Assembly: GCF_040954645.1 (NCBI RefSeq)
Contig: NC_092810.1
Span: 69,624,660 to 69,688,659 of the forward strand
Length of the DNA: 64,000 nucleotides
Direction of reading: 5' to 3'
Source: Diabrotica undecimpunctata
Lineage: Eukaryota > Arthropoda > Insecta > Coleoptera > Chrysomelidae
A program made the position numbers and the translations under genes. Each line of letters starts with the position of its first letter. Positions within the stretch are counted from its first letter, which is position 1. The notes beneath the pieces are model-generated. The model saw only the letters and a list, made by a program, of their open reading frames with translations. It ran no database searches and was not told the origin of the DNA. Shown here piece by piece: positions 920 to 49,400 of this stretch.

Positions 920-986
920 ATGAGTGCTAGTAAGGCTTTTAAAAGAGTAACACATGTCATATTTGATATGGATGGTGTTCTTTTAG
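920..986 (+). CDS. Phosphatase exon 1 (HAD motif I)
   Basis: This exon codes for 22 residues plus the first base of the next codon, and the donor GTAGGT starts at 987. The ATG at 920 is followed by a short basic lead and then the strand ending in FDMDGVLL. The Asp-Met-Asp pair is the catalytic nucleophile and general acid/base. The split codon becomes Asp with either following exon, completing the family signature DGVLLDTE, and this fixes the donor rather than another GT four bases later. Confidence 0.9.
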
Positions 987-6900: not shown

Positions 6901-9900
6901 GGCCATAACAGAACTGGATCAGTCACATTAGCTTTATTGCTAAAGATCGTTACAACTGACTGTAGTTTATTTAAATTTGATTTTAAAAAAGCAAGTTTAT
7001 CTGATATTCATTTGGAAATTGTTGGATATCCTTTTATATATACTTTTAGATATACTTTTATAATTTTTGACCCTAGAATTCTCTAAAAAAGAAATTCTCC
7101 TTCCACTCATTCTTAAAATTTACATTTTCTTGCTCATATTTTTAAAATAACTGGAAATAAAGTTTTGTGTTATTAAAACAATAACAACACGTGTTTACAT
7201 ACTATTAAAATCAGATTACAAATTATATCCGTATAATTAATTAATTAATCCGTGGCTCGCGATAGTTTGGCCACCCGTGGTATATAATATCCAGCAATAA
7301 CACCAGTTCCAGTGGTACGACTTATTTTTTTATATGTATTTTGAGCAACAGTGCTTGAACCATATTTCAGCACTAGCTATATTAACCTGTCCATTATTTA
7401 ATCGTGAAAATAAACGATTGAATACTAATAAAAAATTCATTTTAAACTATTTACGGAATTTAAATTTTTAGATACTGAAATTTTATACACGAAAGCCACA
7501 CAAAACATTTTAGATCAATATGGAAAAACTTTTACATGGGAAGTAAAAACCCAAATGATGGGCCTACACGGCCAAGAAATGGCAGAAAGAATAGTAAAAA
7601 TTTATGATTTGCCCATCTCGGCTCAGGAATATTACAAACAAGCATTGGAACAATATTATATCATCATGCCTGAATGTCAATTAATGCCAGGTAACTATAT
7701 TTTCATTTTACATTTCCAGATACCGAAATTTTTTACAAAAGAGCCATACAAAGCATAGCCAGTAGGTTTGGGAAAGTATATACACCACATATTCAAAGTA
7801 AAATTATAGGAACTCCTGAAAGGGATTCTAGTAGAATTGCTGTACAGGAAATGAAACTACCTATGTCAGTGGATAAATTTCAGGTTGAATTTAGGACAAT
7901 GGCACATAAATACATGACTGATGTGAAATTTATACCAGGTAATTACTTTGGAGGGCCAGTTTGCACGTTTATTTTATTCTGCTCCTAATTTTAATAGTCT
8001 ACATAGACTAACTTCGCTATACAACTAGCTGATTAAAAACATATAAATAAAATTAAATGAATAATGTAATGTTTAACTATCAATGTTGTATTTTTAAATT
8101 AATATTATAATAGCTAGATTATATTTTTGATTTTTAGCTGAAGAAAGGCAGTGGCAATAAAGATTAGTGCTTTTGCTTATAGAAGACAAATTATATATGG
8201 TTATTTGATTTTAATGTATATGTATAATAGTGGTTCTCCTGCTTCTTGGCCTTTGACCTGTTTTTATCCGGTCTTAATGCTGCAGTCGTATTTGTGACAT
8301 TGTCTGCCAGGTGTCTTGGTTCTTCCTAGCAGTCTGGTATTTGTTGGGTTTAAATCACTTTCCCATTGTACAATGTCCTAATGTTATAGAGATATTTATT
8401 TCGTTATTTGGTAATCTGTTACTTTGTATTTTCTTTAGGTTCATTAATTATCGATCTTAAGATTCTCATTCCTGACGTTATAAGTATTCTTCTTGTTTCT
8501 GCTGTATCTTCGGGATTTCGGGCATTGGAAATTTATCAGTTTCTCTTACACCTGTCCTAACATATTGTTATTCTCTCAGATATGTCTCTCACAATCGTCA
8601 CATACTCACCGGGAACTGCTTTCTTATTGAGCCTCTTATTTTCATGCCACTATTATATGGTTTTCTCTTCTCCTTTATTTTTTTTAAACTCGATCACCAT
8701 TAGGTTTCTTTTTCGGCCGAAAACTAAATGTTAAAAAGAAAAAATGTATGGTAGTGAGCAAGAATCACGAGTATAATAGCAATCAAGATAAAGTCACGCC
8801 TATTATTTAAGATTATTAGGACTTCCTTTCATGTTCTAATTCATTTTTTCTACTATTTTTTCCGTGAATAGACCTTCTTTCTCATCTTTTAACATCCACC
8901 ATTTGATTTTTCCTCATCGATATTTTGGTACTTCGATGTCCAACACACGAAACTTATGTTGTGTGATCATTAACCGTTACCTTTCAGTCCTTAAATTCAC
9001 GTGTATCTTCTTTTCTTGTGAGAAAATAATCTATTTGAGAGCTATTTTGCTCACTGTTGTATATGATAATTTGACTTTCTCTCTTTTGAAAGAATGGGTT
9101 AACAATCGCCATATCTAATGCTGTTACTAATTTCAGGATATCATTTCCAGCATCAGTTTTAGTTCCAAAGCCTAGTCCTATATGTATTGTTTCATATATT
9201 TTTTTTTTGGATTGACTAACATGTGTATTAAAATTATCTATTATGACTTTCCCCTCTGATAAAATGTCACTCAGTATGTCTCCTAATTGATAATAAAAAG
9301 CTTTTTTTCATTCTCACCTAGACCGACTCAAGGAGCATACACGCACAATATTATTTATCACACAACTTCATTATTAATTACAAATTTCACTGCGTTATTC
9401 TATCACTCGTTCTCACAACTTCTATTACGTTATCTTTCATTTCTCTATCAGCAATTATACCATCTCCATTCCTAATGTTACTTTTCTCTACATAACACAA
9501 CATAGTTCTTTCTTCCTTTAGTCTTTCCATTTTGGAATATAAATATTCAGCTCGGAATCCTTAAAAAGTGTAATAAGAAATCAAGCCTATAAAGCGGTTT
9601 ATGTATATACCACCAGTTACTCGAATATCGAGACTTAAGTCATCAATTACCATTTAGCGTCGTTTGAACTTACTTCTTTCCAATGGAAATTTGGTTTTAG
9701 ATGTTGATATCTTCGTATTGTATATTTTCACCGCGTTTTTAATATTTGTACCATTGGCTTTCAAGTTATCTTCGTTATTTGAGATCATAGCTGCAGTCAA
9801 ATTTAATCTGTAATTTTAAATATGAGTTACCATCATTCTGATTTGTTCTTTACTTTTTGTTTCCAGTTGGTAATTTGGAGTATGTAAGAGTTTTCACATC

Positions 9901-12900
9901 TTGTTCCACTTGCCTCGTGTATCTAGTTTTGGATCTTCTTTTAACCTTATTCCTGCTGGTGTCTGCCGTATTATTTTCTTTGGCATTTCAGTCTCCTGAT
10001 ATTGTTCTGAACCTATTCAGTATCCTGTATCCGTTCAACATGGCCCATCCAGCGTCAACGTTCAACCCTATACATGTTATGATAAATTTTAAAGCCAAAT
10101 CCGAAAAAGTACCTGAATCTAAATCACACAACTAATTCAGGAAAATATGGAGTTTGTTAAAATGCGGAAAGAACATGGAAAGACATAAGCTCGGAATTAT
10201 CTATTACAAAAAAAATGAAAACTAAAAATAGAGCAGCTTGTAGGTATAAGCAATGGATATTAGCAATATCTTAATGATTATAAATAATCTTCAAAAGTAG
10301 ATACATTCTATTACATTTAAATTTGCAAAATAATTTTGTATTAAGTTAAATCTTGGAGCATTGTTTGCTCTACCCCCACTTTTAATGTTTTGAAGATTTT
10401 CTACATCAATGTTGTTTACTTGTGATGGGGGTACAACAATGGGAGATTGCTGCACAAAAACGGTAATAGTGGAGAAAATAGTAAACGCCGCCAAGACTCA
10501 TTTAAAATTTTAGAACCAAGAAAGACAAAGAAGAATGTTGTTTACTAATTAAATAGCATTTTCTTGTTCTTGATTAGCTGGTGATATATTTGTTCTTCAA
10601 TTGCAAGCAATATTATGTATTACGGTAGTCAATATGATCATAGCTTTTACAATATCTAGAATAATATTCACTGTCACCATTAAGAAGGTTTTTATCAAAC
10701 ATACATTATTCAAAAACAATTATATACTACAGAATTTTCGGAACATATACGGATAATGTGAATATCTATATAGGGAAACGTGTGACAATATTTCGAATTT
10801 TTTAATCTGCACCTGCGATTGTTTAGACATTCAGTGAAAAAAATATATTTTCTTTTTCAAAAATATAGTATTCTGTCCCAGCACGTACGCTAACTTGTGC
10901 AGCATATATTGCTTCTGGAAAGAAATTAACCACTCCTTCACTCCACTTTTTTCTTCCAAAGTGAGGGAGATAGAGTTACTCCTACTCAGAGCTCTTTACA
11001 CACTACCTTTCGTCGCAATTGGTACTTTATATGTAGCTAAGATAGTAATACTTAAATTCACTAGGGCAATTCCTCGGATCTGACTCCTCAGTTCCTAACA
11101 TCGTATCCTTATGTGTGCCTATCGATTCAGATTTGATTTGTCTTGAATTAACGGAACTCAAGGCTGATCTTCAAAATGAAAACCTCCGTTCAGTGCAACA
11201 ACAAATTAACAATACAACTAACGTTAACCAAAAATTAAAGTACATAAATACAGCTATACAAACAGCAGGAAAGAAACATCTTACAAAAACAACAACAAAG
11301 AATAAGGGGTGGATGACACAAGATATACTAGACTTGATGGAACAAAGAGGAAAGATGAAGAATTACCTAGACAAATACAAATAAATAAACAAACACATAA
11401 AAAAGAGAATAAAAGAAGCCAAAGAGGCGTGGATTACAGAACAGTGTGAAGAAATGGAAACCTATGAGAAAAAGTACGATGCGTTTAATATGCACAAAAA
11501 AGTGAAAGAGATAACAGGAAGCATAAAGAAATGCCAAATAGGTAAACTTAAAGACAAAAATGGAAATCTTATTGTAGTTCTAGAGAATAAAATAAAAAGA
11601 TGGACAGAATACCTGAATGAAGTATTTAAAGACGACAGAAACAACTTAACTCAGATAATCAATCCAACTGGGCCAGACATATTGAAAGAAGAAGTAGAAT
11701 ACGCAATAAGAAACGCTAAAAATGGAAAAGCAGATGGACCTGATGAAATTCCTACAGAACTGTTGAAGCTTTTGAATGATAAATCCGTAACCATAATATT
11801 ACATCTATTCAATACAATATACAGTACTGGTATAATACCTCGAGAATGGTTGCTGTCTACGTTTGTCACCATACCGAAGAAAACTAAGGCAACGCAATGT
11901 TCTGATTATCGAAAAATCTCCTTGATGAGTCATCTGCTTAAAATATTTCTTAGAGTCATCCACAACCGAATCTATCAAAAGTTAGATATCGATATTAACG
12001 ATACACAGATGGGATTCCGAAAAGGATTAGGTACAAGAGAGGTTCTCTTTGCCTTAAACGGCCTAACACAGAGATGTCTAGATGTTAATCAAGAGGTACA
12101 CGCCTGCTTTATAGACTTTGAAAAGGCCTTTGACAAAGTACACCACAATATACTCAAAGAAATCCTGGAGGGTCAGAACATCGACACCAGAGACATACAA
12201 ATAATATTAAATCTGTACTGGAATCAGCGAGCTAATATAAAAATAGAAGAACAAACATCGGGCGAAATAGAAATACGTAGAGGAGTACGACAGGGTTGTA
12301 TATTGTCACCGCTCTTGTTTAATATCTACAGCGAACAAATATGCCAAGAAGCTCTCTCACATGCAAACGAAGGGATAATAGTCAATGGAGAAGTTATCAA
12401 TAACATTCGATATGCTGATGATACAGTGATAATGGCAAGAACAGCGGAAGATCTACAACATCTAGTTGAAAGTATGAATGAGATATATAATACGACATAA
12501 GGATGAACGTCAAAAAAACCAAATATATGACCTTCAGTAAGAATCCAATACATGACACTAGTATCGCAACAAACGGTACCCAACTCGAAAAAGTAAACGA
12601 GTACAAATACTTGGGAACCCTCATCAATGAAACAGGTGACCAAAATCACGAGATAAAAAGACGTATTGAAATTGCCAGGTCTACCTTTATAAAAATGAAA
12701 AAATTATTTTATAATCGTGATATTAGTATTCAGCTACGAACTAGAATGTTAAAATGCTATGTATTCAGTACTTTGCTTTACGGTATTGAGGCATGGACTC
12801 TTAAACAGAAGAATGTTAAAAATCTTGAAAGCTTTGAGGTGTGGTGCTACCGCCGTATACTAAAAATAAGTTGGATGGATAAAATTACAAATGAAGAGGT

Positions 12901-15900
12901 AATACGCAGAATAAATAACGATCCAGAAGTTATACTGAATATAAAAAAGAGAAAACTTGAATACTTCGGCCACCTGATGAAAGGACAACCTGATGCAAGG
13001 AAAAATCCAAGGACGCAGAAATCCAGGCCGTAGAAGAATGTCCTGGATGAGAAATTTAAGAGAGTGGTTTGGCTGTACCACTAACGAATTATTCAAAACA
13101 GCAGTAAATAAAATTAGAATCGCCCTAATGATATCCAATCTCCGATAGGAGAGGCACTCAAAGAAGAAGAAGAAGACTGATCTCAAGGGCCTGGCTGGCC
13201 ACCAGAACCCATAGCGTATGCTCGGTATTAAGCTCTCATGGCTTTCACACTGTAGAGCTTAGGTACAGTAAAGATGCTATACTTTTTCTTACTATCTGCT
13301 TCAAATATGGATCCCAAGTGAACTTGGGGTATAACATTACCCTAAAAAGCTAGAGAACTGCTAAACAACTTCGAGAGATCGAGTCTATTAGCTTCTACGG
13401 AACAATTTAAGTTCGGTTTTATTGGGGTTACCTCAAAAGCTACTTCTCGACACCGTTCTCCAAGATCTTGTCTGAGGACGGTTTAAAACGTATACCTATT
13501 AGAAAAAAGAAAAAAGATGATACAGCAGGCGGTACAGTAAATTGACGAGAATAAAGTAATTTTATATTTATTTATTATTTATATTTAAAAAAAATTATAT
13601 TTTAAAAGGTTCAATAAATTACTATGTTTGCTCCTAAGGTCACTTGCTAACGTATTAACAAAGCATACATTGTTTACTTCTGTCAAATTCAGACGAAATA
13701 TTAAATTAATAATAAATAAATATTTGATAGTAAATTTAAATATTATATAAACTAAATAAGATATTTAAAAATAATAATTTTATTTATATGAAATTATTTT
13801 AAAACGAGAAATGTCATAAAAATTTAAACAGATGATTCAATATTGTTATTAATCAGATGGCATTTATGACTTTTAAATTTCGACAATTATCACGGATCTA
13901 ATCTTTTCTTTTTTGTGATATTTTTTAAATTTTTTACTTCTCATTTAATGTCTGTATTTTGTTAATTATTTTTCATGCAGTTTATAATTTAAACCTGCTT
14001 AGAATACATATATGTGATTATTAGAAAATGAAGTTATCGAGAGTAGTGAATTTTACTGTAGAGAAAAAAGTAATACAACGCCAGTATAGAAGCTTCGCTT
14101 CAAAAATAGAGTAGCTGCCTTACGTAAACAGTTTAAATTCCAATGTTTATTTAAACAATCATATCGCAATCCATAATGCAAAGACATTTCTTTTAACAAT
14201 TATCATTTTGCAAATTATTGCTTTATTTTTTACACTATTTTGTCGATTAAACTTTCATGAGGTGTTAGAATCCAAATCGATAAGCCAATGTATCAGTTAA
14301 ACTTAAAAATAAAAAAAAGTAACAACAAAATTTTCTTAATATGTATATTAATTTAGACCAATAGTATACAAATATATTATCAGACTGATTTCGTTGTAGG
14401 AACTTAGCTACTTGCTTGATTTTAATATTTTTCAGCACTTCCTAATGCATCGTTGTTTTAGGTGCGGTCACATTAGTGAAACATCTTCATTCAAAAAATA
14501 TTCCAATTGCAGTAGCAACATCATCCTCACAAGAAAGTTTTAATCTTAAAACGGGAAAGCACAAAGACTTTTTCTCATTATTTAATCATATCGTTTGTGG
14601 AGGCAGTGATCCTGAAGTGAAATCAGGGAAGCCAGCACCTGACATATTTTTAGTTTGTGCTTCTAGGTAAGTATTATGTTTATTATACCTGAAGAGAAAT
14701 AAAAAACAATTTCAATAATATATATTAAATTCAAATGTAATGGGATTAATCGTCATTTTGTTAAAATCTTAATTTTGGTGGACCTTTAATGGAAATGTGT
14801 AAAATTGATCATTTTATTGTCTGAATTACATTATTTTTAATACTCGAATTTGTCAGAATATAGTGTAGTGACCTATTATAGCGCTGACTTGTAACTCCCA
14901 TTTTACATATTCTCTGTATAGACGCTTTATCATAAATTCTAGATCATAAGAATCTTGAGCTAGGACGACTTGATCATCCGCAAAGTTCAGGGAGAACAGT
15001 ACCTCATTTCCTATGGGGATTGTCATTCCCTGGCAGTGGTTTTTCCAATTTTGGATGGCTGCCACAATATATAAATTAAACAGTAAGGGTGACATACTGC
15101 ATCCTTGTCTTAGTCCTTTAGTTACTTTTATTGGCTCTAATAGTCTATTTCCGATTTTTAGGTAAGTAGTGTTATCCCTGTATGCTTCTGTGATTATTCC
15201 AAAAGGTATGGACTAATGCCGAGTTGTTGTAAAGCTTGCCATAATTTAAGTCTTGGAATTATATCATACGCCTTTTCTAGGTCGATGCAGGCTAGATGTA
15301 CTTCGGTACCAACCGCTATTCTTTTTTCTATTAATTGTTGGAGTATAAACAAGTTATCAGTACAAGATCTACCAGGCGTAAATCCACTTTGGTCCTCGCT
15401 AATTAGATGTCCTTCGTCATCTTGTATTTTTCCATTTATTATCTTTCCAAACAATCTCCCGAAAGTAGGTAGGACACTTAATCCTCTGTAGCAGTTAGGA
15501 TCTTTTCGATTACCCTTTTTAAAGATGGACACTTGGTGAGCGGTTTTCCATTCAGATGGTACTTTAATTTGTTGGCATCATTGATTTATTAGAAAAGTTA
15601 TTCGTTCTATTAGGAGTGGACCTCCTGCTTTAAGTAACTCTACAGCTATATTGCCAGGTCCTGAAGATCGCCCGTTTTTCATTTTAATTAACGCAGTACG
15701 GACCTCGTTGTTAGTAGTATTAATGTTACTATTTGTTTGTCTCTCCGTACCGTATTCCTCTCTCATATATTCCAATCTGGACTCTTGGAGTAAATTTTTA
15801 TAGTGATTTTCCCACTTTTCTATAGGAATTAAGTTGCTTTAAGGATTTATGGGTGTTTTTCTTTAGATTAGTGATGGTTCTCCATGCTTCCGTAGTCTGA

Positions 15901-18900
15901 GAATCACCAATTAAATTTTCAACTTTTTCAAGACACATTTTTGTGTTCCCAGAAATTGTTTTTTGCTTCTTTTATTTGATGCGTACTTCTCCGTTTTTCC
16001 TTTGATATGTTACTCTATTCTATTCTATCTATATTATAGATGTTTTATTTGTTAGCCATTTCTTATATATTTTGTTTTTTCTTGTATCATTTCTTTTACG
16101 TTTTCTGTCATCCATGGTGGTTCGTGGTGTTTTTTGTCGTTGTTCTCTGTTCCTAATACTTCATACGCAATTTTTTTATTGTCGTTTTGAGGTTGTTGTA
16201 TTCTTGTTCTACATCCATATTTCTTTCCATCTCATTTAGTTCCTTTTCTAATTTAGATTGAAAATATGTTTAATATTTGGTTGGAATATAAGGTGCAATT
16301 TATATTTCTCCGTTTTGTACTGTGTAGTATAGTTTCTCTCACTTTCGGTGTTCTGTTTGTAGTATTGTTTGAAGGAGCACAAAAGATTAGCTAAAAGAAA
16401 GTAGTGATCTGTCCCACAGTTATATCCTCTTTTTACTCTACAGTCTTGGCACTTAAATTTTGATTTCTGTCTCATTATTATATAGTCTATGACTGTAGAA
16501 ATCATGCTAAACACGTGGTATTTAAAGATCCTTACAAAGCTTTTGAAGGTCGTTTAGTTTTTTGGTAGTAATCGGGAACCTCGATTTGTAAGGTTTTATT
16601 GGAGAATTATTAAAAGAAGGTCTTCTGTTCAATCACAAATTAATCCCTTAATTTGTAAGCTCACATTATACTTAACTTCTTAACCTTTTATAGTTTCACC
16701 GTGTATAATTGAGACATTATGAAACATATCGAGTAATATTTTAATAATTAGAGTCCATTCACCTGCAAAACCTGCAGACTTAATAAATTGCCGAATAATA
16801 TATTTTCTAATTGAACTTCCTAAGTGTTGCAGTAACGGCCTAGAATAAATTGTATTGTAAGCTCATAGTTACAGTGTAAGTAAGTTACAGAGTAAGCTCA
16901 TTTTACAATTAATGAACAAACGAAGAGAATCCAAAGGAAAAAATGACAAGGACGGAGAATACAAAAGACTAAATAGAATAATTCGAAAAAAAATAACCGA
17001 AGCAAAAGAGAAATGGCTGGAAACAAAATGCGTGGAAATAGAAGAACTACAACAAAGGCACGATTTTTTTAATTTACATAAAAGGGTAAAAGAGTTTACA
17101 TCGACTACCAAGAGAACGACTTTTCACACCATGCTGAACACGGATGGCAAACTGCTAGAAAAAACGGAAGACAAACTGAAAGAATGGGAAAACTATATTA
17201 AAATTCTTTTTCACGACATACGAGAAGAACCAAGATTGGAAAATAACAACGAAGGGCCAACAATTCTGAAATCTGAAATCATAAATGCAATTAATCATCT
17301 TAAAACAAATAAAAGCCCAGGTCCAGACGGAATATACCCAGAAACGTTAAAATTAATCAGCGAAGAAAATATCGAAATATTTGTCCTTTTATTCAATCGC
17401 ATTTATGATACAGGTAAAATACCCCAAGATTGGCTGGAGTCAATATTCATCCCACTACCAAAAAAGCCAAAAAACCCACAACACTGCAATGAGTTCCGTC
17501 TGATAAGCCTTATGAGTCATGCAGTAAAAGTCCTACTAAAAATCGTACATAATCGTATCTATAGAAAGTGCGAAACAATCATCGGAGACGATCAGTTTGG
17601 ATTCAGAGCCGGCATGGGAACGAGAGAAGCCCTGTTCAGTTTACTAGTTCTCGCCCAAAAATGCTACGACCAACAGAAAGATATATTTATATGCTTTATA
17701 GACTTCGAAAAAGCATTTGATAGAGTAAGACACGACCTACTATTAGAACGTTTGCAAGAAGTCGGTTTAGATGGAAAAGACATCAATATCTTAAAAAACT
17801 TGTACTGGAACCAAAACGCCAGAGTTAGGATCGAAGGTTCCACATCCGCAGAAGTAGAAATTAGGAGGGGAGTTAGACAAGGATGTGTTCTGTCGCCTCT
17901 GCTGTTTAATCTTTACTCCGAGTTTCTATTTAAAGAAGCATTGGAGGATTCCAAGGATGGAGTCAAGGTGAATGGCGTAAATATCAACAGTATCAGATAC
18001 GCCGATGATACAGTGTTAATTGCGGATTCCGACGTAGGTCTACAACGACTCATCGACAAGACCAACTCGACCTGTGAGCAATTTGGTATGAAAATAAACA
18101 TTAAAAAAACCAAAGTGATGTCAATCCGAAAAAATCAAAACGTACCTCAACCTTGCACAATAAATGGGCACATTTTAGAACAGGTCAATAGATTTAAGTA
18201 CCTGGGATGTTGGATCGATAGCAGCCTAAATCCTGATCTAGAAATAAGATCGAGAATAGAACAGGCCAGAAAATCTTTCGAAAAAATAAAAAAACTGCTT
18301 TGTGATTCTCGAATAAAACTCGAAATTCGACTACGTTTATCAAAATGCTACGTCTGGTCGACTCTTCTATATGCAGTTGAAACGTGGACTCTAAAAACAT
18401 CAACCGTAAATAAATTGGAGGCCTTTGAAATGTGGATCTACCGGAGAATGCTTAAAATTTCATGGACATCGCATACCTCAAACGAAGAAGTGCTGCATAG
18501 AATAGGCAAGGAAAGAGAACTTTTTAACACAGTAAAAGTTAGAAAAACATCATACCTAGGCCACATACTGAGAAATAATAAGTACCAATATGCCCAACTT
18601 ATAGTGAAAGGAAAAATCGAGGGAAAGAGAGGCCTAGGAAGGAAAAGACTATCGTGGCTCAGAAACATCCGACAATGGACAGGGCTAAATTTTGAACAGC
18701 TAATAAGAACAGCTGAAGATAGAGAAGATTTTAAAATTGTAGTAGCCAACCTCCATTGAGGAGAGGGCACTTTAAGAAGAAGAAGAAGCTCATAGTTCAA
18801 TGTTTGTTAGTATGATAGAAGCATTAAACTCTGTGCTGAGGTATACATTATTTGTGAAATTATAAATTGGGGATTTGAGCTCATTTGAGCGCAGTCTATT

Positions 18901-24900: not shown

Positions 24901-26058
24901 ATTATTTCTCTTTAGTCAATTGAAAAATTGTATTTTTAAAGCAGTTTCTGATATGGAACGTCAGATAAATGATTTATTTTACTCTTTATGATTATTTCCA
25001 ACAAGATATTTGAATAAAATAGTGACTCATTAACTAAGTTGTAGTTTATCATTTATTCTCAATTCGTTTGTGTTACAGAACATTTTCCTGATGAGGATGC
25101 TTCATCCATTTGAAATTTACCAAAAAACTTTCTTTACCTTGTTCTGGCTTGGAATTCTTCTACGCATGTACTCCAATTATATTAACCCTTGTTTGTTTAT
25201 TCTTATTATAACCATTACTAGCATTTCTATCCTACTATCTTAATATCCACTTTACTGCTTGATCTAGATCTTTATTTTTAATTATCAACACCACTCATCT
25301 TTTGTTGTCTCATCTCTCGGTATCTCATTATATATCAATATATGTTCCCCAACTGCCGCTTAACCCTTTTATTCTCTTCTTTGTCGCTTTTTATGCACAT
25401 ACGTCGATGTTACGATATTTAATTTTATTTCTATTTCCTGATATCTTTTGTTTAGTGATCTAATATCCCACGTTACTATTTTTAATATGTTTTTCATTTT
25501 CCTTATCCTTGCCCTTTTTCTCGCATGGGTCGTTTTAGTAGTTTCGGTCCTCTTGTGAAAGTTTTTACCTGCTATATGAGTATACAGTTTCTTTTGGCGG
25601 ATAGGTTACTATTAGCACGTATCAAGTGTTCTCCTTTATCGTTGGGACCGGTGTGACAGTCATTAAAACCAAGAAATAAGTTTATTTTAATTATAGTTTC
25701 ATATGTTAAAAAAACTAGTTAAAAAAAATTACAAATAAAAATCTAGTGTATTTCATAAATATCACTCATTGCGAAAAGTGCTTCTTGCACAAAATATTAA
25801 TAAACAACATATAAATAACGTGGATAAATTAATATTTATTAATTTTCTAGATTTACTGATAACCCCAGTCCGGAAAAATGTTTGGTGTTTGAAGATGCCC
25901 CAAACGGCATATTAGCCGCTATTGGTGCAGGAATGCAAGCTGTTATGATACCAGATGAAAATGTACCACCAGAACTTAGAAAAAATGCACATGTTGTTAT
26001 TGATAGATTAGACAGGGCCCCCTTAGAAAAATTTGGGCTGCCAAGTTTGAATAGTTAG
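920..26058 (+). CDS. Pseudouridine-5'-phosphatase-like HAD hydrolase, five exons
   Basis: Spliced gene of the haloacid dehalogenase superfamily, HDHD1/GS1-like branch. Enzymes of this branch remove phosphate from 5'-pseudouridine monophosphate and related sugar phosphates in the cytosol. Exons are 920-986, then 7472-7690 or 7720-7938, then 14462-14666 and 25851-26058. All junctions have GT/AG ends and matching phases, and either form gives 232 residues, close to the usual length of about 230. All four HAD motifs are visible: DMDGVLLDTE across the exon 1/2 junction (nucleophile and acid/base Asp), ATSSS in exon 3, KSGKPAPD in exon 3 (motif III Lys), and FEDAPNG in exon 4. Introns of 6.5, 6.5 and 11.2 kb are filled with transposons. 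The exact substrate is inferred from family resemblance. Confidence 0.9.
987..1334. other. Start of phosphatase intron 1
   Basis: Intron sequence between exon 1 and the first LINE insertion. It is AT-rich and I see no gene or clear repeat in it. Confidence 0.5.
1335..2755 (-). mobile_element. RTE-like LINE, 5'-truncated, reverse transcriptase half
   Basis: A non-LTR retrotransposon copy reading leftward inside phosphatase intron 1. From 2655 down to 1348 the translation runs through typical LINE reverse transcriptase blocks: NYRPIS, a GFR block, [20 protein letters not shown], the catalytic FADDI, then a C-terminal region with [10 protein letters not shown] and WAGHIARM. One stop codon near 2206 splits the frame just after the PISP block. 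No endonuclease domain is present, so the copy is 5'-truncated near 2755. The 3' end at about 1337-1352 is a short ATGATG run, as in RTE-type elements. The clade is inferred from the protein; the LINE identity is secure. Confidence 0.85.
2756..4430. other. Intron sequence without recognised genes
   Basis: AT-rich intronic DNA. Nothing codes convincingly. A hairpin lies at 3432-3474 (13-bp arms, aaggattctttat) and is followed at once by a second small one at 3478-3505 (arms aagtagct). Confidence 0.4.
4435..4965 (+). mobile_element. Heavily decayed RTE-like LINE fragment
   Basis: Read rightward, with many stops and frameshifts, this stretch keeps scattered reverse transcriptase blocks like those of the 1335-2755 copy. 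They include a LLHKK block followed by LENY near 4660-4690, a GRF/GFR-like block with a TNDH equivalent near 4790-4830, and the DFRKAFE-like block near 4890. It is an old fragment of the same or a related family. Confidence 0.6.
5220..6272 (+). mobile_element. LINE fragment (YADDTV family), 3' half
   Basis: Reverse transcriptase fragment of a second LINE family, which recurs at 11100, 16871, 31935, 58440 and 62577. It enters at [11 protein letters not shown], continues through [15 protein letters not shown] and the catalytic [10 protein letters not shown], and then the C-terminal region with [14 protein letters not shown] and [14 protein letters not shown]. Stops at about 5661 and 6009 and a frameshift near 6000 break it. 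The 3' end is a short AAGAAGAAG run at about 6258-6269, as in the other copies. Confidence 0.85.
6290..6900 (-). pseudogene. hAT-family transposase remnant
   Basis: The minus strand keeps a 65-residue open stretch (6542-6739) with [10 protein letters not shown] followed by LPQLAVFI. This is the block around the first catalytic Asp in GTF2IRD2/ZBED-like hAT transposases. Downstream, in broken frames, come phrases such as [17 protein letters not shown] and [14 protein letters not shown], also typical of that group. There are many stops and no terminal repeats were found. It abuts the LINE fragment on its left. Confidence 0.65.
6901..7471. other. End of phosphatase intron 1
   Basis: AT-rich intron sequence leading to the acceptor taaatttttag at 7461-7471. 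I see no gene or repeat. Confidence 0.5.
7472..7690 (+). CDS. Phosphatase exon 2a (cap domain, version A)
   Basis: Exon of 219 bases with phase 1 at both ends, acceptor TTTTAG and donor GTAACT. It codes for 73 residues beginning DTEILYTKA, with [10 protein letters not shown] near the middle and ending in QLMPG. In HAD phosphatases of this type the segment between motif I and motif II is the helical cap that closes over the active site and sets substrate choice. The TWEVK...MG block is the form I associate with HDHD1-type enzymes, so this version is the likelier ancestral one. It is followed after only 29 bases by a same-length counterpart (7720-7938). Confidence 0.9.
7720..7938 (+). CDS. Phosphatase exon 2b (cap domain, version B)
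   Basis: A second exon, also 219 bases and phase 1/1, with acceptor CATTTCCAG and donor GTAATT. It codes for [19 protein letters not shown], an [10 protein letters not shown] block where version A has MMGLHGQEM, then LPMS and a terminal KFIPG. Aligned without gaps, the two versions share 18 of 73 residues, including the DTE triplet, Gly-Lys at 18-19, Gly31, Leu-Pro at 47-48 and the terminal Pro. There is no stop and both splice sites are good. Most changed positions face the part of the protein expected to form the cap. I infer a functional alternative exon from an old tandem duplication. Confidence 0.85.
7939..8789. other. Start of phosphatase intron 2
   Basis: AT-rich intron without a convincing gene. 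At 8132-8138 there is a consensus acceptor (tttttag) followed by a seven-codon open stretch in the right phase, a stop, and an overlapping AATAAA near 8157. See the findings for a possible short terminal exon. Confidence 0.4.
8790..9560 (-). mobile_element. Decayed LINE endonuclease region
   Basis: On the minus strand, broken translation keeps phrases of an RTE-type apurinic-like endonuclease and linker. They include a VYAP-like block near 9330 and, further along, peptides resembling the region between endonuclease and reverse transcriptase. Stops are frequent. The assignment rests on pattern and orientation only. Confidence 0.4.
9860..10085 (-). mobile_element. LINE 3'-end remnant
   Basis: The minus strand reads [18 protein letters not shown] and then a basic stretch. 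This is the W..GH..R motif found near the C-terminus of RTE-like LINE proteins (compare [10 protein letters not shown] in the 1335-2755 copy). It is short and broken by stops. Confidence 0.5.
10090..11095. other. Intron sequence without recognised genes
   Basis: Between two LINE remnants in phosphatase intron 2. Short open stretches exist on both strands (for example 10291-10494 minus) but none resembles a known protein to me. Confidence 0.4.
11100..13175 (+). mobile_element. LINE (YADDTV family), near-complete reverse transcriptase, disrupted
   Basis: Second copy of the family also seen at 5220 and 16871. Reading frames 11115-11384, 11454-12500 and 12503-13033 follow one another. Together they give the linker, the reverse transcriptase ([27 protein letters not shown], catalytic [11 protein letters not shown]) and the C-terminal region ([33 protein letters not shown]). 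A stop at 11384, a frameshift or stop at about 12500 and another shift at 13010 inactivate it. The endonuclease domain is missing. The 3' end is an AAGAAGAAGAAG run at about 13159-13173. Confidence 0.9.
13180..14461. other. End of phosphatase intron 2
   Basis: AT-rich intron DNA up to the acceptor TTTTAG at 14456-14461. No coding sequence or structured repeat was recognised. Confidence 0.5.
14462..14666 (+). CDS. Phosphatase exon 3 (HAD motifs II and III)
   Basis: Exon of 205 bases, entering in phase 1 and leaving in phase 2 at the donor GTAAGT. It codes for the rest of the hinge and the start of the core Rossmann fold. [14 protein letters not shown] carries the motif II Ser/Thr. The stretch from [15 protein letters not shown] to [10 protein letters not shown] supplies the motif III Lys. 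It joins in frame to both exon 2a and exon 2b. Confidence 0.9.
14667..14864. other. Start of phosphatase intron 3
   Basis: Short AT-rich stretch before the next LINE; nothing recognised. Confidence 0.4.
14865..16515 (-). mobile_element. LINE (FADDQVV family), truncated at both ends
   Basis: A third LINE family on the minus strand. From 16515 leftward it holds the end of the endonuclease ([13 protein letters not shown], then [10 protein letters not shown], the conserved DH block), a broken linker, and then the reverse transcriptase. That includes [53 protein letters not shown] and the catalytic [12 protein letters not shown]. The copy stops at about 14870 just after the palm domain. Several stops and shifts are present. 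Confidence 0.85.
16516..16858. other. Intron sequence without recognised genes
   Basis: AT-rich stretch between two LINEs. Bases 16859-16870 are the left target-site copy of the next LINE. Confidence 0.4.
16871..18785 (+). mobile_element. Young LINE insertion (YADDTV family) with 12-bp target-site duplication
   Basis: The element is bracketed by the direct repeat aagctcatagtt at 16859-16870 and 18786-18797, as expected for target-primed reverse transcription. The 3' end is an AAGAAGAAG run just before the right repeat. The 5' end lacks the endonuclease, so the copy was truncated on insertion. It still carries an uninterrupted 615-codon frame (16912-18759), unlike every other copy of this family in the window, which suggests it is the most recent insertion among them. 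Confidence 0.85.
16912..18759 (+). CDS. LINE reverse transcriptase, 615 residues, open frame
   Basis: Reverse transcriptase with its C-terminal region. Visible blocks are [12 protein letters not shown] near residue 130, [10 protein letters not shown] near 195, [13 protein letters not shown] near 225, [12 protein letters not shown] near 263, [16 protein letters not shown] near 320 and the catalytic [11 protein letters not shown] near 362. These are followed by [31 protein letters not shown] and LGHILRN. The last 60 residues are basic. The N-terminal endonuclease is absent, so the protein could not by itself nick a target. The ATG at 16912 is the first after an in-frame stop at 16858-16860. It lies inside phosphatase intron 3 on the same strand. 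Confidence 0.9.
   Translation: MNKRRESKGKNDKDGEYKRLNRIIRKKITEAKEKWLETKCVEIEELQQRHDFFNLHKRVKEFTSTTKRTTFHTMLNTDGKLLEKTEDKLKEWENYIKILFHDIREEPRLENNNEGPTILKSEIINAINHLKTNKSPGPDGIYPETLKLISEENIEIFVLLFNRIYDTGKIPQDWLESIFIPLPKKPKNPQHCNEFRLISLMSHAVKVLLKIVHNRIYRKCETIIGDDQFGFRAGMGTREALFSLLVLAQKCYDQQKDIFICFIDFEKAFDRVRHDLLLERLQEVGLDGKDINILKNLYWNQNARVRIEGSTSAEVEIRRGVRQGCVLSPLLFNLYSEFLFKEALEDSKDGVKVNGVNINSIRYADDTVLIADSDVGLQRLIDKTNSTCEQFGMKINIKKTKVMSIRKNQNVPQPCTINGHILEQVNRFKYLGCWIDSSLNPDLEIRSRIEQARKSFEKIKKLLCDSRIKLEIRLRLSKCYVWSTLLYAVETWTLKTSTVNKLEAFEMWIYRRMLKISWTSHTSNEEVLHRIGKERELFNTVKVRKTSYLGHILRNNKYQYAQLIVKGKIEGKRGLGRKRLSWLRNIRQWTGLNFEQLIRTAEDREDFKIVVANLH
19058..20220 (-). pseudogene. Unclassified transposon-associated protein, broken
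   Basis: Minus-strand frames 19481-19969 and 19058-19444, with continuation up to about 20220, form one disrupted protein. In order they show [34 protein letters not shown], a Lys-rich stretch with a C..C pair ([15 protein letters not shown]), [26 protein letters not shown], and [18 protein letters not shown] know this layout as a multi-copy protein type in insect genomes. The spaced acidic residues in CVWD, SDSCGG and CDSIHVKIE would suit a DDE-type transposase, but I cannot name the superfamily. A tandem duplication of about 21 bases (ttttctgcaatgcac, near 19935-19975) shifts the frame. No terminal repeats were found. Confidence 0.5.
20385..21460 (-). mobile_element. Penelope-like element with GIY-YIG endonuclease remnant
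   Basis: On the minus strand the right part reads [16 protein letters not shown], the Penelope-type form of the palm block, and then, in broken frames, DDFL-like and SPFLDMTV blocks. At 21147-20908 comes a stretch with [20 protein letters not shown], which matches the KPT..NRYL..HS region of these enzymes. Further left, at 20589-20395, [18 protein letters not shown] followed by ILERE and [10 protein letters not shown] is the C-terminal part of a GIY-YIG nuclease. The order reverse transcriptase then GIY-YIG is diagnostic of Penelope-like elements. Frames are broken. Confidence 0.75.
21730..24480 (-). mobile_element. Gypsy-like retrotransposon with internal deletion
   Basis: Minus-strand order is gag (24250-23357, including a 60-residue open stretch with [20 protein letters not shown]), then directly the end of RNase H (near 23326-23140, [21 protein letters not shown]). 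The integrase follows (22875-22240: zinc-binding C..C in [34 protein letters not shown] in place of the usual TD.G block, [13 protein letters not shown]). Last comes the integrase C-terminus (22142-21740, GDLVWLYNP and [10 protein letters not shown]). Protease and reverse transcriptase are missing, so gag is fused to the tail of RNase H near 23330. Flanking LTRs were not recognised. Confidence 0.8.
24481..25189. other. Intron sequence without recognised genes
   Basis: AT-rich phosphatase intron 3 sequence between the deleted Gypsy element and a LINE remnant. I see no coding sequence. The right edge of the Gypsy element, including any LTR, may extend into it. Confidence 0.35.
25190..25500 (-). 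mobile_element. LINE endonuclease N-terminal remnant
   Basis: The minus strand reads [20 protein letters not shown] near 25480-25420, the TWN.R.L block that opens LINE endonucleases. After two stops comes [12 protein letters not shown], the equivalent of the YSGVP block. It is short and decayed. This is the only copy of an endonuclease start recognised in the window apart from the R1-like elements. Confidence 0.5.
25501..25850. other. End of phosphatase intron 3
   Basis: AT-rich intron ending at the acceptor aattttctag (25841-25850). Nothing else was recognised. Confidence 0.5.
25851..26058 (+). CDS. Phosphatase exon 4 (HAD motif IV, stop)
   Basis: Last exon, entered in phase 2, ending at TAG 26056-26058. 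It codes for [19 protein letters not shown], whose Glu-Asp pair binds the magnesium ion, then [19 protein letters not shown] and the terminal FGLPSLNS, a close of the kind seen in HDHD1-like proteins. It lies 11.2 kb from exon 3. Confidence 0.9.
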
Positions 26059-37148: not shown

Positions 37149-38308
37149 GTGGCCTATTTGCGGGAAGCAAAGTAGTCGGGGCACACTTTAAACTGTTTTA
37201 TTGATTTATTAGCAATAAACTACATACTAAAAAACAAGTAAGAAAACTGTAAGAGTTCTTTTCGTTGTCACCTCGTCGTGTGATCAAGGTTAGTAGATGT
37301 TAAGTAGGTTGTCTCGTAACTATGTGGGCGAAGCGAGGGGAAGGCAGAATGCTTACGTCACTTATACGACAAAGTCAAATTTGACAGTTGTCTGCACGTC
37401 TGAGTTTAAGTTCACGTTTGTTGATGTCTCTATTCTATAGTATCATTAGTTCGTTTATTTGTTTAGTTATTGTTTAGTTTTTATTTTTAAGTATAGGTAT
37501 AAGGACAATATTATTTATAGAGACTTATTATTTAGTTATTTGTGTACATAAACACTTGTGAAGTGTGTTTTCGTAGCCGTGATATCAAGGTTTATCATAA
37601 CAATTATATGTAGTTTTGTACGTTATAATAATGATATATTTTTTTAGATGAGATAAGTATATATAGCTTGAAGATTTGTGCTTGAAGGACTAATCATTTT
37701 TTGTATTTTAATCTAATAATAAATTATTTATATTACCTATTGGTTTTTTTTGCCTACCACTAGATATGATAAAATACTGCAAATTCCAGGAAAAACATAA
37801 TAAGTAAGTTCCTACATATTTAGTATTTTTGCTTTTGAACTTTTTCTACTGTTTTTTTGGGTTTTTGTGCGAAATAAACTGTTATCTCCATTTAAAACAC
37901 ATAATATTATCACTATAATCAATTCTATTTTTTGTCATCAGACTATTGATTTTAGAAAAAAAAATTGATATAATTACTAATATAAGAACCACTTAACATC
38001 CCTATACCCAAGAAAATCCCAAAATATATTGCAAAACCTAAGTTTTTGAACCTTATATTAGCATTGAAGCTTATGGCAATTTTAAAAGTGTCGTATGGGT
38101 GACGTATTCCCGCCTTTAAAAAGCGAGCATTTGATTGGTCTATAGTTACGAGACAACCTACTTAAATATCTACTAACCTTGTCGTGTGATCGTGTTCTGA
38201 CAGCCTTCAGCTGCTCTCATCGCCTCTTCTTTTCTCCGTCGACGTTCCCTCACTTCAATAGCACAGTCAACCCATGTGTGGCTGGAGGTTAACTGTCAAT
38301 CTGCCACA
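37149..38308 (-). repeat. 3' LTR, interrupted
   Basis: Left LTR of the Gypsy-like element. It is split by the TIR element at 37286-38180 and the duplicated 11-bp target gtcgtgtgatc. Contains caataaac-type sequence near 37210 that could serve for polyadenylation on the opposite strand only. Confidence 0.85.
37286..38180. mobile_element. TIR element (895 bp) inside the LTR, 11-bp target duplication
   Basis: Terminal inverted repeats of about 38 bp begin aaggttagtagatgttaagt on the left; the right end, read on the other strand, is aaggttagtagatatttaag with one small length difference. The flanks gtcgtgtgatc (37275-37285 and 38181-38191) are direct repeats, and the other LTR shows the uninterrupted site. 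There is no long open frame, so it is non-autonomous. A target duplication near 9-11 bp fits Mutator-like elements best, but superfamily assignment is an inference. Confidence 0.85.
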
Positions 38309-41300
38309 GGGCTCCCCTCCAGTGAGGAACCTGCTGGTTTCGAACGGCTATGTTGACTTGTGTTGCTCATCAGACGGTTGGCATATGCATGTTCTTCCTG
38401 CACCTGTTGGGCCGCTGGAATATATGCTGGTTTGAGTCGGTCCATGGAAATTCGCTGAGGAACATTTTGGACATCCACAGTTACAAACTTATCACTTCGT
38501 TCTAACACTCTAAACGGGCCGGTATAGGGAGGTGTAAGAGGAGGCTTCACTTTATCGGTTCGCACAAACACATGACTCGTAGTCTGTAGATCCGGATGGA
38601 CAAAGGCAGTGCGGGCTGAGTGGTTGCTCGTCGGTACAGGACGCAATGCTCCCATGGTCTCACGTAGTCGTTGGACAAAACTATGCTCGTTGGGTGTAAC
38701 AGCACTAGGGACAAGCAGCTGTCCAGGGAGACTCACTGGGGTACCATACACTAACTCGGAGGCTGTACATGCAATGTCTTGTTTGAAAGTGTTTCGAAGG
38801 CTTAGCATGACCAGAGGTAGGGCTTCAACCCACGATACTGTGTCCGCGGCGATGAGAGCAGCCTTGAGCGTTCGGTGGAAACGTTCAATACATCCGTTTG
38901 ATTGTGGGTGGTAGGCAGTGGTTTTAATATGTTGTACACCTAGTAATCCATTGAGTTGGCGAAACAACTGGCTCTCAAATTGCCTACCTCGGTCCGTTGT
39001 TATGGTTCCTGGCACGCCAAACCGGGATATCCATCCCTCAAGGAGCTTCTGCGCGACGACTTCGGTTGTAATCTCCGAGATAGGTATGGCCTCTGGCCAT
39101 CTTGTGAAACGGTCGATGATTGTGAGCAGGTATCGAAAGTTCTGATTTGCTGGAAGTGGGCCAACGATGTCGACATGTATGTGTGCGAATCGATCGTCTG
39201 GCATTCCTAGAGGTGTCACAGGTGTAACAGTGTGACGTCCGATTTTGGTACGTTGACATTGGATGCACTCTCGTGACCACTGCTTGACTTGGCGATTCAT
39301 GTTATGCCACACAAAACGTTCAGCAATCATTCGTAATGTAGCAGCATGCCCTGGGTGGGACTGCGTGTGGAATTTCAGGAAAACATCTCTTTGGAACACA
39401 GCTGGCACATAAACTCGTATACGACCATCTTGGACTGAACAATAAATAGCTCTGGTAGAACTATGCGTTGAAGTTGTAAGGAACTGGCAGGATCGTTCAG
39501 GGTCTGTTGAAGACCCTCATCTGTAGTCTGAGCTTCGGATAGCCGGTCATAGTCAATAGTAATGGGTGTTGTGATAGCGTCTACTTCAGGTCGTGAGAGA
39601 CAATCGGCAACGATATTGGCTGCGCCCTGTATATGTCGAGAATTGGCCAATAAATTCTAGTTGACGTATCTGTCGTGAAGACTGCCGCTCATGTCGCTGT
39701 TGGAAGGCAAACGTTAAAGGCTTGTGATCAGTATAAATGGTAAATGGCATACCCTCAAGAAAATGGCGGAAGTGATGTATGCCACTGAATATGGCAAGCA
39801 ACTCTCGGTCATAAGTGCTGTAGTTTCGCTCCGTCTTAGAAAGCTTTCGAGAGAAGAAAGCGATGGGCTGTAGGTGTTCACCTATAAGCTGTTGCAAAAC
39901 ACCGCCGATGGCAGCATCTGAGGCATCAACTGACATGTTCAATTGGGCATTTGGTGCTGGAAAGACCAATTCAGTCGACGCGGCCAAGAGTTCTTTTACC
40001 TTGGTGAAAGCTGCTGCAGCTGCTGGTGTTAATGTTAGTTCTTGCTGCTTTTTCTTTTGTTGAGACAATAACTCCGTTAGTGGCATTAGCTCATTGGCAG
40101 CATTAGGTAACCAACGTCTGTAGAAATTGAACATACCCATAAATCGTCGTAGCTGTCGATAGGTCGTAGGTTGTGGAAACTTACGAATCGCGCTAACTTT
40201 AGCCGGTAATGGACGAACGCCAGTTGGGGATACCGTGGCACTCAGGAAGTTTACTTCACGTTTACGGAATTTTGATTTATCCTTGTTTGTTTGGAGTCCA
40301 TTTGCTTCCAGAATCCGAAGTACTGATGCCAGGTGTTGCTCATGCTCAGTCTCAGTCTCCAAGGCAACCAAGATATCGTCAATGTATACATACACATATG
40401 AGCATTCTCGAAAAAGGTGATCGAGGTATCTCTGGAACGTCTGGGCAGCATTTCGCAAACCGAACGGCATTCGGAGGAACTCGTACAGCCCAAAGGGGGT
40501 TATTACAGCAGTCTTTTGGATTTCCTTCGGGTGGACAGGAATTTGGTAAAAAGCACGTACCAAGTCGATGCAAGAGAAAATTTTCTTACCATGTAGCTGG
40601 TTAGCAAAATCCTGGATGTGCGGTATAGGGAAGCGATCTGGTTTCGTCATGGCATTTAAACGGCGGAAGTCTCCACAGGCACGCCATCGTCCATTGGACT
40701 TCTGAACTAAGTGAAGCGGACTGGCCCAAGATGACTTTTATGGTCGAATAATGCCTGCCTGCATCAGCTCGTTGAATTCTGCTCGTGCAGCTTGAAGACG
40801 GTCTGGTGGAAGTCTTCGTGGTTTAGAGAAAACTGGTGTACCTCGAGTCTCAATATAGTACTGGACTCTTTCAGTATCCTCTGGTATAGCAACAGTTGGA
40901 CGATCATAGGGATGAGCAGTGGATAAGCCTACTTCTGGCACCCTAACACGACGAGACACACAGGTAATACTGCTTGACATACTTGGACTTACTAGTCGTT
41001 TGTTTCTCATGTCTACACTAATGCCATGGTACGTCAGAAAATCGGCTCCTAGTATGGGTGTGGTGACATCTGCGACTACAAATGTCCATGTTACAGGTTG
41101 GCCTAGACCAAGGTTTAGTGTGAGCTGTTTCTGACCATATGTTTGGATGCACGATCCGGTGGCAGAATACAGGCGTACAGTGCTGGGCTGAGTCGCAGTG
41201 CAGATTTTACGTGGAAGCACACTTAGGTCTGCCCCTGTATCAATAAGAAATTGAAGTTGGAGAGCATTATCGATAATGAAGAGGCGGCGTGGTATGTGAG

Positions 41301-46457: not shown

Positions 46458-49400
46458 CAGGGACGTATTTATAGTTTTTTAATGGGGGGGGATCCTAATT
46501 TCCAAATTAAGTAAAACCGGGGCTTGGTTTTGAAATACCTTTGAAAAAAGTAATAAAAACAAATTTCTAAAAATTTTATTAAAACTTAAAATACCGTTTT
46601 ACAAAATTAAATTCATTCTCTTCCTTCTTTCAGCTAACTTATTTACAATTTCTGAGGAATTTAGACCTATTGTCACATTCCGATGAATACTCATGAGAGC
46701 TAATCCTGTAAGCCTCTCGTCTCCCATTCTATTTCTAAGATAAGTTTTTAACCGTTTAAGTGATGAAAAAGTACGTTCAGGTGTGGCAGTAGATACTGGA
46801 AGTGTTGCTAAAATTTGAAGAAGTTTCCTAACCGTTGGAAAAAAAATTTTATCACATCGGTCCATAGCTTCTAGTGCAGTAGACGGCTGTTCTTGATTGC
46901 ACCAGTGGTTGTGCCAAAGCTCATACTCACTTACTAAATGTTTTATTTCAACTTCCCTGAGAAATATTTCTCCGATTCCTGCTATACATTTCTTTGCTCT
47001 CTCAGTATTTTGGGTGCGATCTGGTAGAAGTAACTGAATTCCTGAAATTGCTTCTTCGTGAGGTTTAAAGCGAGCATCAAGCTCGGTCACTACATGTTGT
47101 ATAAATGGATAAAATATATTTCGCCGATAGTAAACTTCAGCAGTGTCCCCTGGTATATTATTGCGGTTCAATTGTCTCCTACTTACTCTTGGAACAGTTA
47201 TATCTGCTGAAATTAATTTTTTTGCTTCCTCAAAAAGATTTGAGAATTCACGTTCGTTACGAAGGTTCTGTAAAGTGGTTTTTATTGTTTTTACGTAACT
47301 GCAAGAGTCGGTTAAATCTACATTGACTTTTTGTAGGGTTCGGTTTAAGCTTGACGTATAGGAGAAAACCTTCCTTAAAATAGTTAGTGAAACTATAAAT
47401 TGACTGTTTTCCATTGCGACTTGTAACTGGTAAGCTTGGGTTGCAATTTCCCTTCCAGATTCTTGAAGTTCTTGAAGCACGGAATTTACTACAGGAAACA
47501 TCTCAGCAAATCTTTCGACGGCTGTATGTTTTTCTGTCCAGCGTGTCTCACAAAGCGAAATAAGCGTTGAATGAGGTGCTTCAATCTCGTCCGCAGTTCT
47601 TTTTAAAAGTCCATCCCGGAGTGCAGATTGCCGAAAGAAGTTAATTATACTTTTAATAGTTCCGATGCAGTTTCGTATTGCAGGGATCTCGCATGAATGA
47701 CCCAAAACTAAGTTTAATGTGTGCGCCACACAGTGTACGAATAGTGCTCGAGGATATTTGTCCATGATTATTGTTCTTACTCCTTTAAATCGTCCGCTCA
47801 TCACAGCCGCACCATCATAGCCCTGGCCAACTAAATTCTCCAAATCTAATCCAAACGACTTAAGTTTATCGATGATTGTCGTAGCTAGAGCTAATCCTGT
47901 TACTTCATCAACGTGTATAAATTCAATGAAATCCTCTCGAATAAGTGCCTTTCCAGAAGAGCAGTCTACATACCGAAGGCAAAGTGAGAGTTGTTGGTGA
48001 CGCGAAATGTCTTGAGTTTCGTCAGCAAGTACAGCAAAGAAACCTGATTGTTTCACTCTATTTATTATTTGCTCCTGAACAGCATTTCCACACAAATCAA
48101 TAATTTCATTTTGAATGACGGACGATGTGTACATAGCCCGAGAATGATTGCTTTGAGAAATAAGGTGATTTTTAAGTACTTCATCACCAGCTTGCGCACG
48201 AAAACGAAGTAGTGCACGAAAATTACCGTCATTATGTAGAGGATCTATAATACCGATTTCACCAGAGTCTTGATTTCCTCTCAAAGGCAATTCCTGCCGT
48301 CCGCAAAATAAGATTGTGTCCACTATGGCACATAGCCTCTCTCTATTTTCTCGGGCAATTTTTTTATTTTCTTCATTAAACGACTCTGTAATATCACGAG
48401 TTTGACCTTCCATAACGCTTACAAAATTTCTTGCCCGTTCAACAGCATATTTATGATAATTTGTATTTCGATGATGTTCCATTTTTTCCAGAGCTTTTTT
48501 CCAGTTATTAAATGGTTTTGTGACAAAACTTCCAAGTTTTTGATCACCGCGACCACCTTCGGTCTGTCCAAATAAAACGCACATTTTGCATAATGATCCT
48601 TGTAACATATTTGAATATACTAACCATGGATTCTTTTGGGTCCAATGACGTTGAAAACAAAGTTTTCTTTTACCACAGACGGGGAACTTAAAAGTCTCTG
48701 GAGGGGTCCAAGTTTCTTTTAAAACTGTTAATTTTTCTTCGTCATTTTTTGGATTATTTGATAAATATTTACCAAAATCGTAGTCCATACCAGAATCCAG
48801 ACCAGCTAAAAAAAATGCTTTAAAATGGTGAGAGATTAAAATTAAAGTAACTTACCATTGCTTGGTTCTCTGTTTCTATCTGAGGTGGAGAGAGTTGGAG
48901 CATCCCCATCTGTACTAATATCCATACTCGGCGTAGTTAGGATTTTATCGTTTTGAGGATTCGGTTCATCATTAGTTTTCCCCTTCTTTGGAAAAAATCC
49001 CAAAAGCGACTGCTGTAAAGTTCGTTTCATACTTCTTTCACTAAAACATTAATATTAAGCAATATCCAAATAATAATTATTATATTATCTATATATACGT
49101 AACGACACTGTAGATACTTACACAAACACCACAAAAATTTCGACAAATACAACAGTTTACTGGATTTGTACTTGTACGATAGCAACAAAATATAGAAAAC
49201 AATACACAAATCCACATATGCACCGGCCGGCCGACAAACAAGACTGGCACTAGACAGACAGCACTAGACTGCGACTCATATATAACCACCGTTCAGTGAT
49301 AAAATAAGTTGGGTCACTCTCGATTTAGCGCCGGTTTACCTGCCCCCGTCGTCTCACGCCCCGTACCTACCAAATTCTCACCGGTCAGTCCTCTCTAAAT

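What the first reader, a model, noticed from the sequence alone, without database searches (positions are those of the whole stretch)
7472..7938. Duplicated, mutually exclusive cap-domain exons in a pseudouridine-phosphatase-like gene
Two consecutive exons have the same length (219 bases), the same phases (1 in, 1 out), good splice sites and open frames. Both start with the family's DTE triplet and end at the same Pro-Gly. They share 18 of 73 residues without gaps. The segment is the cap of a HAD phosphatase, which decides which phosphate ester fits. One gene would thus make two enzymes with the same catalytic core and different substrate choice. I know of no description of this for the family, though I cannot search.
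Basis: partly seen in the sequence, partly recalled or inferred. Interest (0 to 1): 0.88.

Follow-up and report, generated by a model that had tools for sequence, protein, structure and literature searches.

The report
Swappable lid exons in insect phosphatase
A leaf-beetle gene for an enzyme resembling pseudouridine-phosphate phosphatase carries two alternative copies of the exon that makes the enzyme's lid; beetles and flies share this old pair, it was already reported in one fly, and I found no test of whether the two lids prefer different substrates.

Summary
In a Diabrotica PUDP/Gs1l-type gene, exons A (7472-7690) and B (7720-7938) have the same length (219 nt) and phase, and each encodes the cap of a HAD phosphatase. 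The intron between them is 29 nt, and the only branch-like motif at a usable distance from B's acceptor lies inside exon A. One mRNA should therefore not hold both; retaining the 29 nt gives a stop. The pair is not confined to this genome: 18 annotated isoform pairs differ only in this cap (9 beetle, 9 fly). Profiles trained on one order sort the other order's caps correctly (64 of 64), so the duplication most likely predates the beetle-fly split. Both isoforms model as human PUDP (TM 0.94, 0.93). cDNA cloning already showed the exon choice in Drosophila montana Gs1l (Hopkins 2018). Residues fixed by type lie in a loop that, from memory, sets specificity in related HADs; B has a conserved acid there that A lacks. 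Different substrates are plausible but untested; the 2018 modelling argued for equivalence. Decapod models show three or four cap copies. Verdict: real, ancient, known in outline; the substrate question is open.

The parts
920..986 (+). Exon 1 (coding part): start codon and HAD motif I (FDMDG), phase 1 donor
7472..7690 (+). Alternative exon A (cap nearer to human PUDP), 219 nt
   Evidence: typed A by cap profiles
7681..7685 (+). Branch-like motif TTAAT inside exon A, 35 nt from the end of B's acceptor (inferred branch site of exon B)
   Evidence: pattern scan; inference
7691..7719 (+). 29-nt intron between A and B; if retained, frameshift and stop after residue 117
7720..7938 (+). Alternative exon B (B-type cap), 219 nt
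   Evidence: typed B by cap profiles
14462..14666 (+). Exon 3: core with HAD motifs II and III
25851..26058 (+). Exon 4: core with HAD motif IV (FEDAPNG) and stop

Best explanation
The gene is the beetle counterpart of fly Gs1l, related to human PUDP. Splicing puts in either exon A or exon B, not both, because the 29-nt gap is too short for an intron and B's likely branch site lies in exon A (inferred from sequence). Both products share one catalytic core and differ only in the four-helix cap (seen in relatives by annotation and, in one fly, by cDNA). Form A keeps the cap nearer to PUDP and most likely dephosphorylates pseudouridine 5'-phosphate (inferred). Form B has kept another specificity loop since before beetles and flies parted and may act on another, unknown, small phosphate ester or with altered preference (inferred, about even odds). 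The confidence given is for the gene, the exon choice and its age, not for the substrate step.
For: Exon anatomy and 29-nt intron. 18 matched isoform pairs besides the window, 9 beetle and 9 fly, identical outside the cap. Cross-order sorting: fly A 16 of 16 and fly B 14 of 14 on beetle profiles; beetle A 17 of 17 and beetle B 17 of 17 on fly profiles. A/B split 100/99 in a 65-row tree; holding the beetle caps together is rejected at p 0.033. Positions 29, 48, 56 and 80 share no residue between 33 A and 31 B caps; 54 almost none. Models with pLDDT 93.9 and 93.5, best match human PUDP. D. montana cDNAs with one exon or the other.
Against: No transcript data for this genome. The isoform pairs are annotations; that they rest on RNA reads is recalled, not seen. 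Double-cap models exist in other species (30 tandem-cap proteins among 83 multi-cap ones), so exclusion may not hold family-wide. Hopkins et al. argue for near-equal function. In the 104-row tree the tests against one origin per order were not significant (p 0.075 for 35 beetle rows, 0.28 for 15 fly rows). In the 65-row tree fly A and fly B caps were not single clades and the program warned of long branches.
Confidence: 0.9

Rival explanations
1. The two caps are functionally equal; exon choice only tunes amount, stability or timing of one enzyme.
For: Hopkins et al. model both D. montana forms on 3L5K and call them practically equivalent to HDHD1A; both forms here model as PUDP, TM 0.94 and 0.93; [quoted passage not shown]
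Against: Type-specific fixed residues shared by beetles and flies, some in the putative specificity loop.
Confidence: 0.4
2. Both caps go into one 305-residue protein with two lids.
For: A+B stays in frame; double-cap models are annotated in Exocentrus, Harmonia, Eupeodes, Cochliomyia, Blattella and others.
Against: Here the 29-nt gap is below the shortest insect introns I know of (recalled); retention gives a stop after residue 117. In D. montana 9 of 12 long clones kept the intron with a stop, and the authors thought the other 3 might be cloning artefacts.
Confidence: 0.05
3. The pair works mainly as an off switch: transcripts keeping A, the 29 nt and B carry an early stop and are degraded or untranslated, so exon competition sets enzyme level.
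For: Early stop on retention; intron-retaining D. montana clones, 9 of 12 long ones.
Against: Does not explain why B stayed open with residues of its own fixed across two orders; may coexist with the best explanation.
Confidence: 0.15
4. Exon B is a decaying or chance copy.
For: B caps are less alike between orders than A caps (mean cross-order scores 66-67 against 90-91 bits).
Against: Open, spliceable, and of a type found in beetles and flies and, by double-cap models, in a wasp, a cockroach and a stick insect.
Confidence: 0.01

Closest known systems
Drosophila montana Gs1l exons 2 and 3 (Hopkins et al. 2018, PMC5953924; parts 1-3 of 7 and passages read)
   Same: Counterpart gene; two cap-coding exons giving short variants of identical length with one exon or the other; the intron between them brings a stop when retained
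   Different: The passages I read do not speak of a cap domain or of duplication, nor of beetles or an ancient pair; long forms were also cloned
Human PUDP/HDHD1A (PDB 3l5k, 9m7l)
   Same: Same core motifs and fold; 113 of 219 (A) and 107 of 219 (B) identical
   Different: Cap nearer to A (24 of 72) than to B (18 of 72). Hopkins et al. list four human isoforms, one lacking much of the cap and none with an alternative cap
Enzyme genes with alternative duplicated exons such as KHK-A/KHK-C, PKM1/PKM2, CYP4F3A/B (recalled)
   Same: One enzyme gene, alternative exons
   Different: Here the swapped unit is a whole HAD cap
Mutually exclusive exons with too short a donor-to-branch distance (PMC5740500, passages read)
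   Same: Steric exclusion
   Different: Here the whole intron is 29 nt and the likely branch site lies in the upstream exon

Membership tests
PUDP/HDHD1 (HAD with C1 cap) | HAD motifs I-IV | tested here: met
   D16, D18, T115, S116, S117, K152, E178 and D179 invariant or nearly so in both alignments (31 and 36 sequences); Pfam HAD_2 and Hydrolase above cut-off
PUDP/HDHD1 (HAD with C1 cap) | Human PUDP as nearest solved sequence and fold | tested here: met
   phmmer 236 and 220 bits; TM 0.94 and 0.93
PUDP/HDHD1 (HAD with C1 cap) | Hydrolysis of pseudouridine 5'-phosphate | not testable with these tools
   needs an enzyme assay
Mutually exclusive exon pair | Neighbouring homologous exons, same length and phase, AG/GT sites | tested here: met
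Mutually exclusive exon pair | Barrier to joint inclusion | tested here: met
   29-nt intron, branch-like motif inside exon A, stop on retention; joint inclusion itself would stay in frame
Mutually exclusive exon pair | Transcripts with each exon alone | not testable with these tools
   no reads for this genome; annotated in 18 relatives' pairs and seen as cDNA in D. montana
Gs1l exon 2/3 pair of flies | Same two cap types | tested here: met
   cross-order sorting 64 of 64; D. montana isoform X2 (P0225) was one of the 14 fly B caps and lies on the B side of the split

The most novel reading that the evidence does not exclude
Arthropods use exon choice to swap the whole substrate lid of one phosphatase: form B hydrolyses a different metabolite from pseudouridine phosphate, the pair has been kept for some 300 million years or more (date recalled), and crustaceans separately extended it to arrays of three or four lids.
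Probability: 0.4. Interest if true: 0.75.

Novelty: new member of a known kind. Interest (0 to 1): 0.55.

Why it matters
The cap is held to be a main setter of substrate choice in HAD phosphatases (recalled). A natural pair of caps on an identical core, kept in beetles and flies, is a clean test of that idea: assay two proteins that differ only within residues 24-95. It could also give a handle on pseudouridine metabolism and on the cold-responsive splicing reported in D. montana.

Tried and rejected
Rejected: chance similarity and a lone gene-model error (18 matched pairs elsewhere). No third cap copy was recognised in the window. An independent origin in each order is disfavoured, but the larger tree could not exclude it (its beetle set was 35 rows, leaving out several beetles and the paralogues). 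Rfam and promoter scans were not run. I had no second species' DNA, so no dN/dS.

Literature: ten searches, of which I saw capped listings (for example 20 of 55 papers and 15 of 196). 'Gs1l' found the D. montana paper. I saw no other description of the pair in those listings. Term look-ups in the main text of PMC3303723, PMC3228551, PMC3923563 and PMC5147784 gave no occurrence of Gs1 or CG15441 (the latter number recalled). Hatje and Kollmar 2013 is not held and may list the gene; no supplements were read.

A plasmid search found nothing and says nothing about insects. The window's own genome could not be searched: the same request came back 'busy or cannot be reached' ten times, so paralogues in this genome are unexamined.

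The placing of residues 54, 56 and 59 at beta-phosphoglucomutase V47, R49 and S52 is recalled numbering; of such enzymes only the alignment to Thermotoga 3kbb was seen.

Full report
What is there. The window holds a gene on the + strand with coding exon 1 (920-986), exon A (7472-7690) or exon B (7720-7938), exon 3 (14462-14666) and exon 4 (25851-26058). The gaps between them are 6485, 29, 6523 and 11184 nt. Either choice gives a 232-residue protein. Form A differs from a Diabrotica balteata protein (P0007) at 2 of 232 residues, none in the cap. Form B differs from a D. virgifera protein (P0003) at 11 of 232, 5 of them within residues 24-95. The window is thus most likely from a Diabrotica beetle (inference).

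What the exons encode. Both forms hit Pfam HAD_2 and Hydrolase above cut-off. Both have human PUDP as nearest solved sequence, 236 bits for A and 220 for B. The AlphaFold models have mean pLDDT 93.9 and 93.5 and show the same four helices between residues 25 and 90. Best fold match is human PUDP 3l5k, TM 0.94 and 0.93. Against human PUDP the A cap shares 24 and the B cap 18 of 72 residues.

Exclusion. The A-B gap is 29 nt, below any insect intron I know of (recalled). In the 60 bases up to B's acceptor the pattern YTNAY occurs three times, 35, 14 and 9 nt from the acceptor's end. Only the first is at a usual branch distance, and it lies inside exon A. This fits steric exclusion; a human survey counted donor-to-branch distances under 50 nt as such cases (PMC5740500, passages). 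Keeping the 29 nt shifts the frame and stops after residue 117; joint inclusion, or skipping both, would stay in frame. The branch site is a motif match, not shown.

Relatives. Three protein searches listed the 120 best of 5225, 5415 and 6264 hits. The set held was 247 sequences: 244 hits, the two window forms and human PUDP. Among those of 200-270 residues, a search for proteins alike at both ends but not in the middle gave 20 pairs. One is the window; one (Zeugodacus) also differs at the N-terminus; 18 remain. By the names they are nine beetle pairs (Agrilus, Photinus, Diorhabda, Leptinotarsa, Gonioctena, Anthonomus, Dendroctonus, Sitophilus, Euwallacea) and nine fly pairs (Phlebotomus, Stomoxys, Haematobia, Ceratitis, Glossina, Teleopsis, Drosophila grimshawi, D. 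busckii, and one whose cluster representatives are D. sulfurigaster and D. nasuta). A Lutzomyia pair differs also in its last residue.

Age. Profiles built on beetle caps sorted 16 of 16 fly A and 14 of 14 fly B caps correctly; fly profiles sorted 17 of 17 and 17 of 17 beetle caps. I chose the lists from caps already typed, so this tests agreement between orders and is no blind survey. In a 65-row tree the A/B split has support 100/99, and holding all 34 beetle caps together is rejected at p 0.033. That tree has 71 columns, a bootstrap that had not settled, fly A and fly B not as single clades, and a long-branch warning for human PUDP. In a 104-row tree B caps of beetles, flies, a wasp, aphids, a louse and a bug group at 95, with cockroach and stick-insect B caps beside them at 81, while A caps group only weakly. 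The tests against one origin per order on it were not significant (p 0.075 and 0.28).

What differs. Over 33 A and 31 B caps, positions 29 (T or S against K, E or R), 48 (K in 33 of 33 A, in no B), 56 (mixed in A; E in 30 and D in 1 of 31 B) and 80 (F or Y in 31 of 31 B, in no A) share no residue. Position 54 is L in 28 of 33 A and T or S in 29 of 31 B. Positions 25, 28, 53 and 70 are fixed in both. Human PUDP is A-like at 29, 45 and 48, B-like at 62, and like neither type's common residues at 54 and 56. Positions 54-59 follow the fixed Gly53 and fall, by recalled numbering, on the substrate-specificity loop of beta-phosphoglucomutase, with 56 at its Arg49. Thermotoga 3kbb has Glu at 56, as B does (alignment). 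Form B has thus possibly changed its preference; this is inference.

Other arrangements. Of the 247 sequences, 83 hold more than one cap: 30 have caps in tandem on one core, 49 are two whole HAD units, 4 fit neither rule. Tandem forms include insects with A then B, Harmonia with B then A, Artemia with two A-like caps, and decapods with two, three or four caps, all A by profile. In the 104-row tree most decapod caps form groups of their own, but one divergent set of three falls among the insect A caps, so separate multiplication is likely rather than shown. Whether double-cap models are proteins or annotation errors I cannot tell; the authors of the D. montana study suspected artefacts in the 3 such clones without intron.

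What was known. Hopkins et al. 2018 (PMC5953924; parts 1-3 of 7 and passages read) cloned exon 1/2/4 and 1/3/4 cDNAs of D. [quoted passage not shown] They modelled both forms on human HDHD1A, judged them practically equivalent, and asked for activity tests. D. montana isoform X2 (P0225) is a B form here. Their exon-2 form has 113 of 221 residues in common with HDHD1A; a D. virilis A form has 114 of 220 and P0225 108 of 220, so their exon 2 is probably A (inference). The splicing is therefore not new. The breadth, the age, the 29-nt barrier in a beetle and the type-specific loop I did not see in print in the listings.

Verdict. Real and functional by conservation (confidence 0.9); specificity switch about even odds. 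Interest 0.55: ordinary as a discovery of splicing, better as a ready test of what HAD caps do.

Noticed in passing
window 55106-55657, - strand: Last part of a PfkB-type sugar or nucleoside kinase (Pfam PF00294, E 5e-15). Its best solved relative is 7c1x (E 1.4e-5), which I recall as Arabidopsis pseudouridine kinase. A pseudouridine kinase near a pseudouridine-phosphate phosphatase would be a striking neighbourhood, but ten nearby ORFs and a motif scan showed no further exons or glycosidase part.
   Followed up: partly
P0004, Diabrotica balteata; window 7691-7809: An annotated 275-residue model joins exon A to an acceptor inside exon B; an in-frame AG is here too, ending at 7809. Probably a gene-model error, possibly a third isoform.
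   Followed up: partly
P0042, P0147, P0149, P0156, P0161, P0175, P0236 (decapods): Three or four cap copies in tandem on one catalytic core, mostly 73 residues apart; Panulirus isoforms carry different subsets.
   Followed up: partly
For example P0123, P0125, P0127, P0128, P0179: 49 of 247 proteins hold two PUDP-like units far apart in one chain; named ones include copepods, an acorn worm and a midge.
   Followed up: no
P0056, P0066, P0079, P0092, P0116: Single-cap beetle proteins, apparently separate paralogues, score as B type, so B-like caps also seem to exist as stand-alone genes.
   Followed up: no
P0027, Harmonia axyridis: Cap order is reversed (B before A) and the A copy sits on a very long branch.
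   Followed up: no
window 11385-12497 (+), 16861-18756 (+), 38299-39516 (-), 46602-48851 (-): Mobile-element reading frames: two reverse transcriptases, an integrase, a hAT transposase.
   Followed up: no
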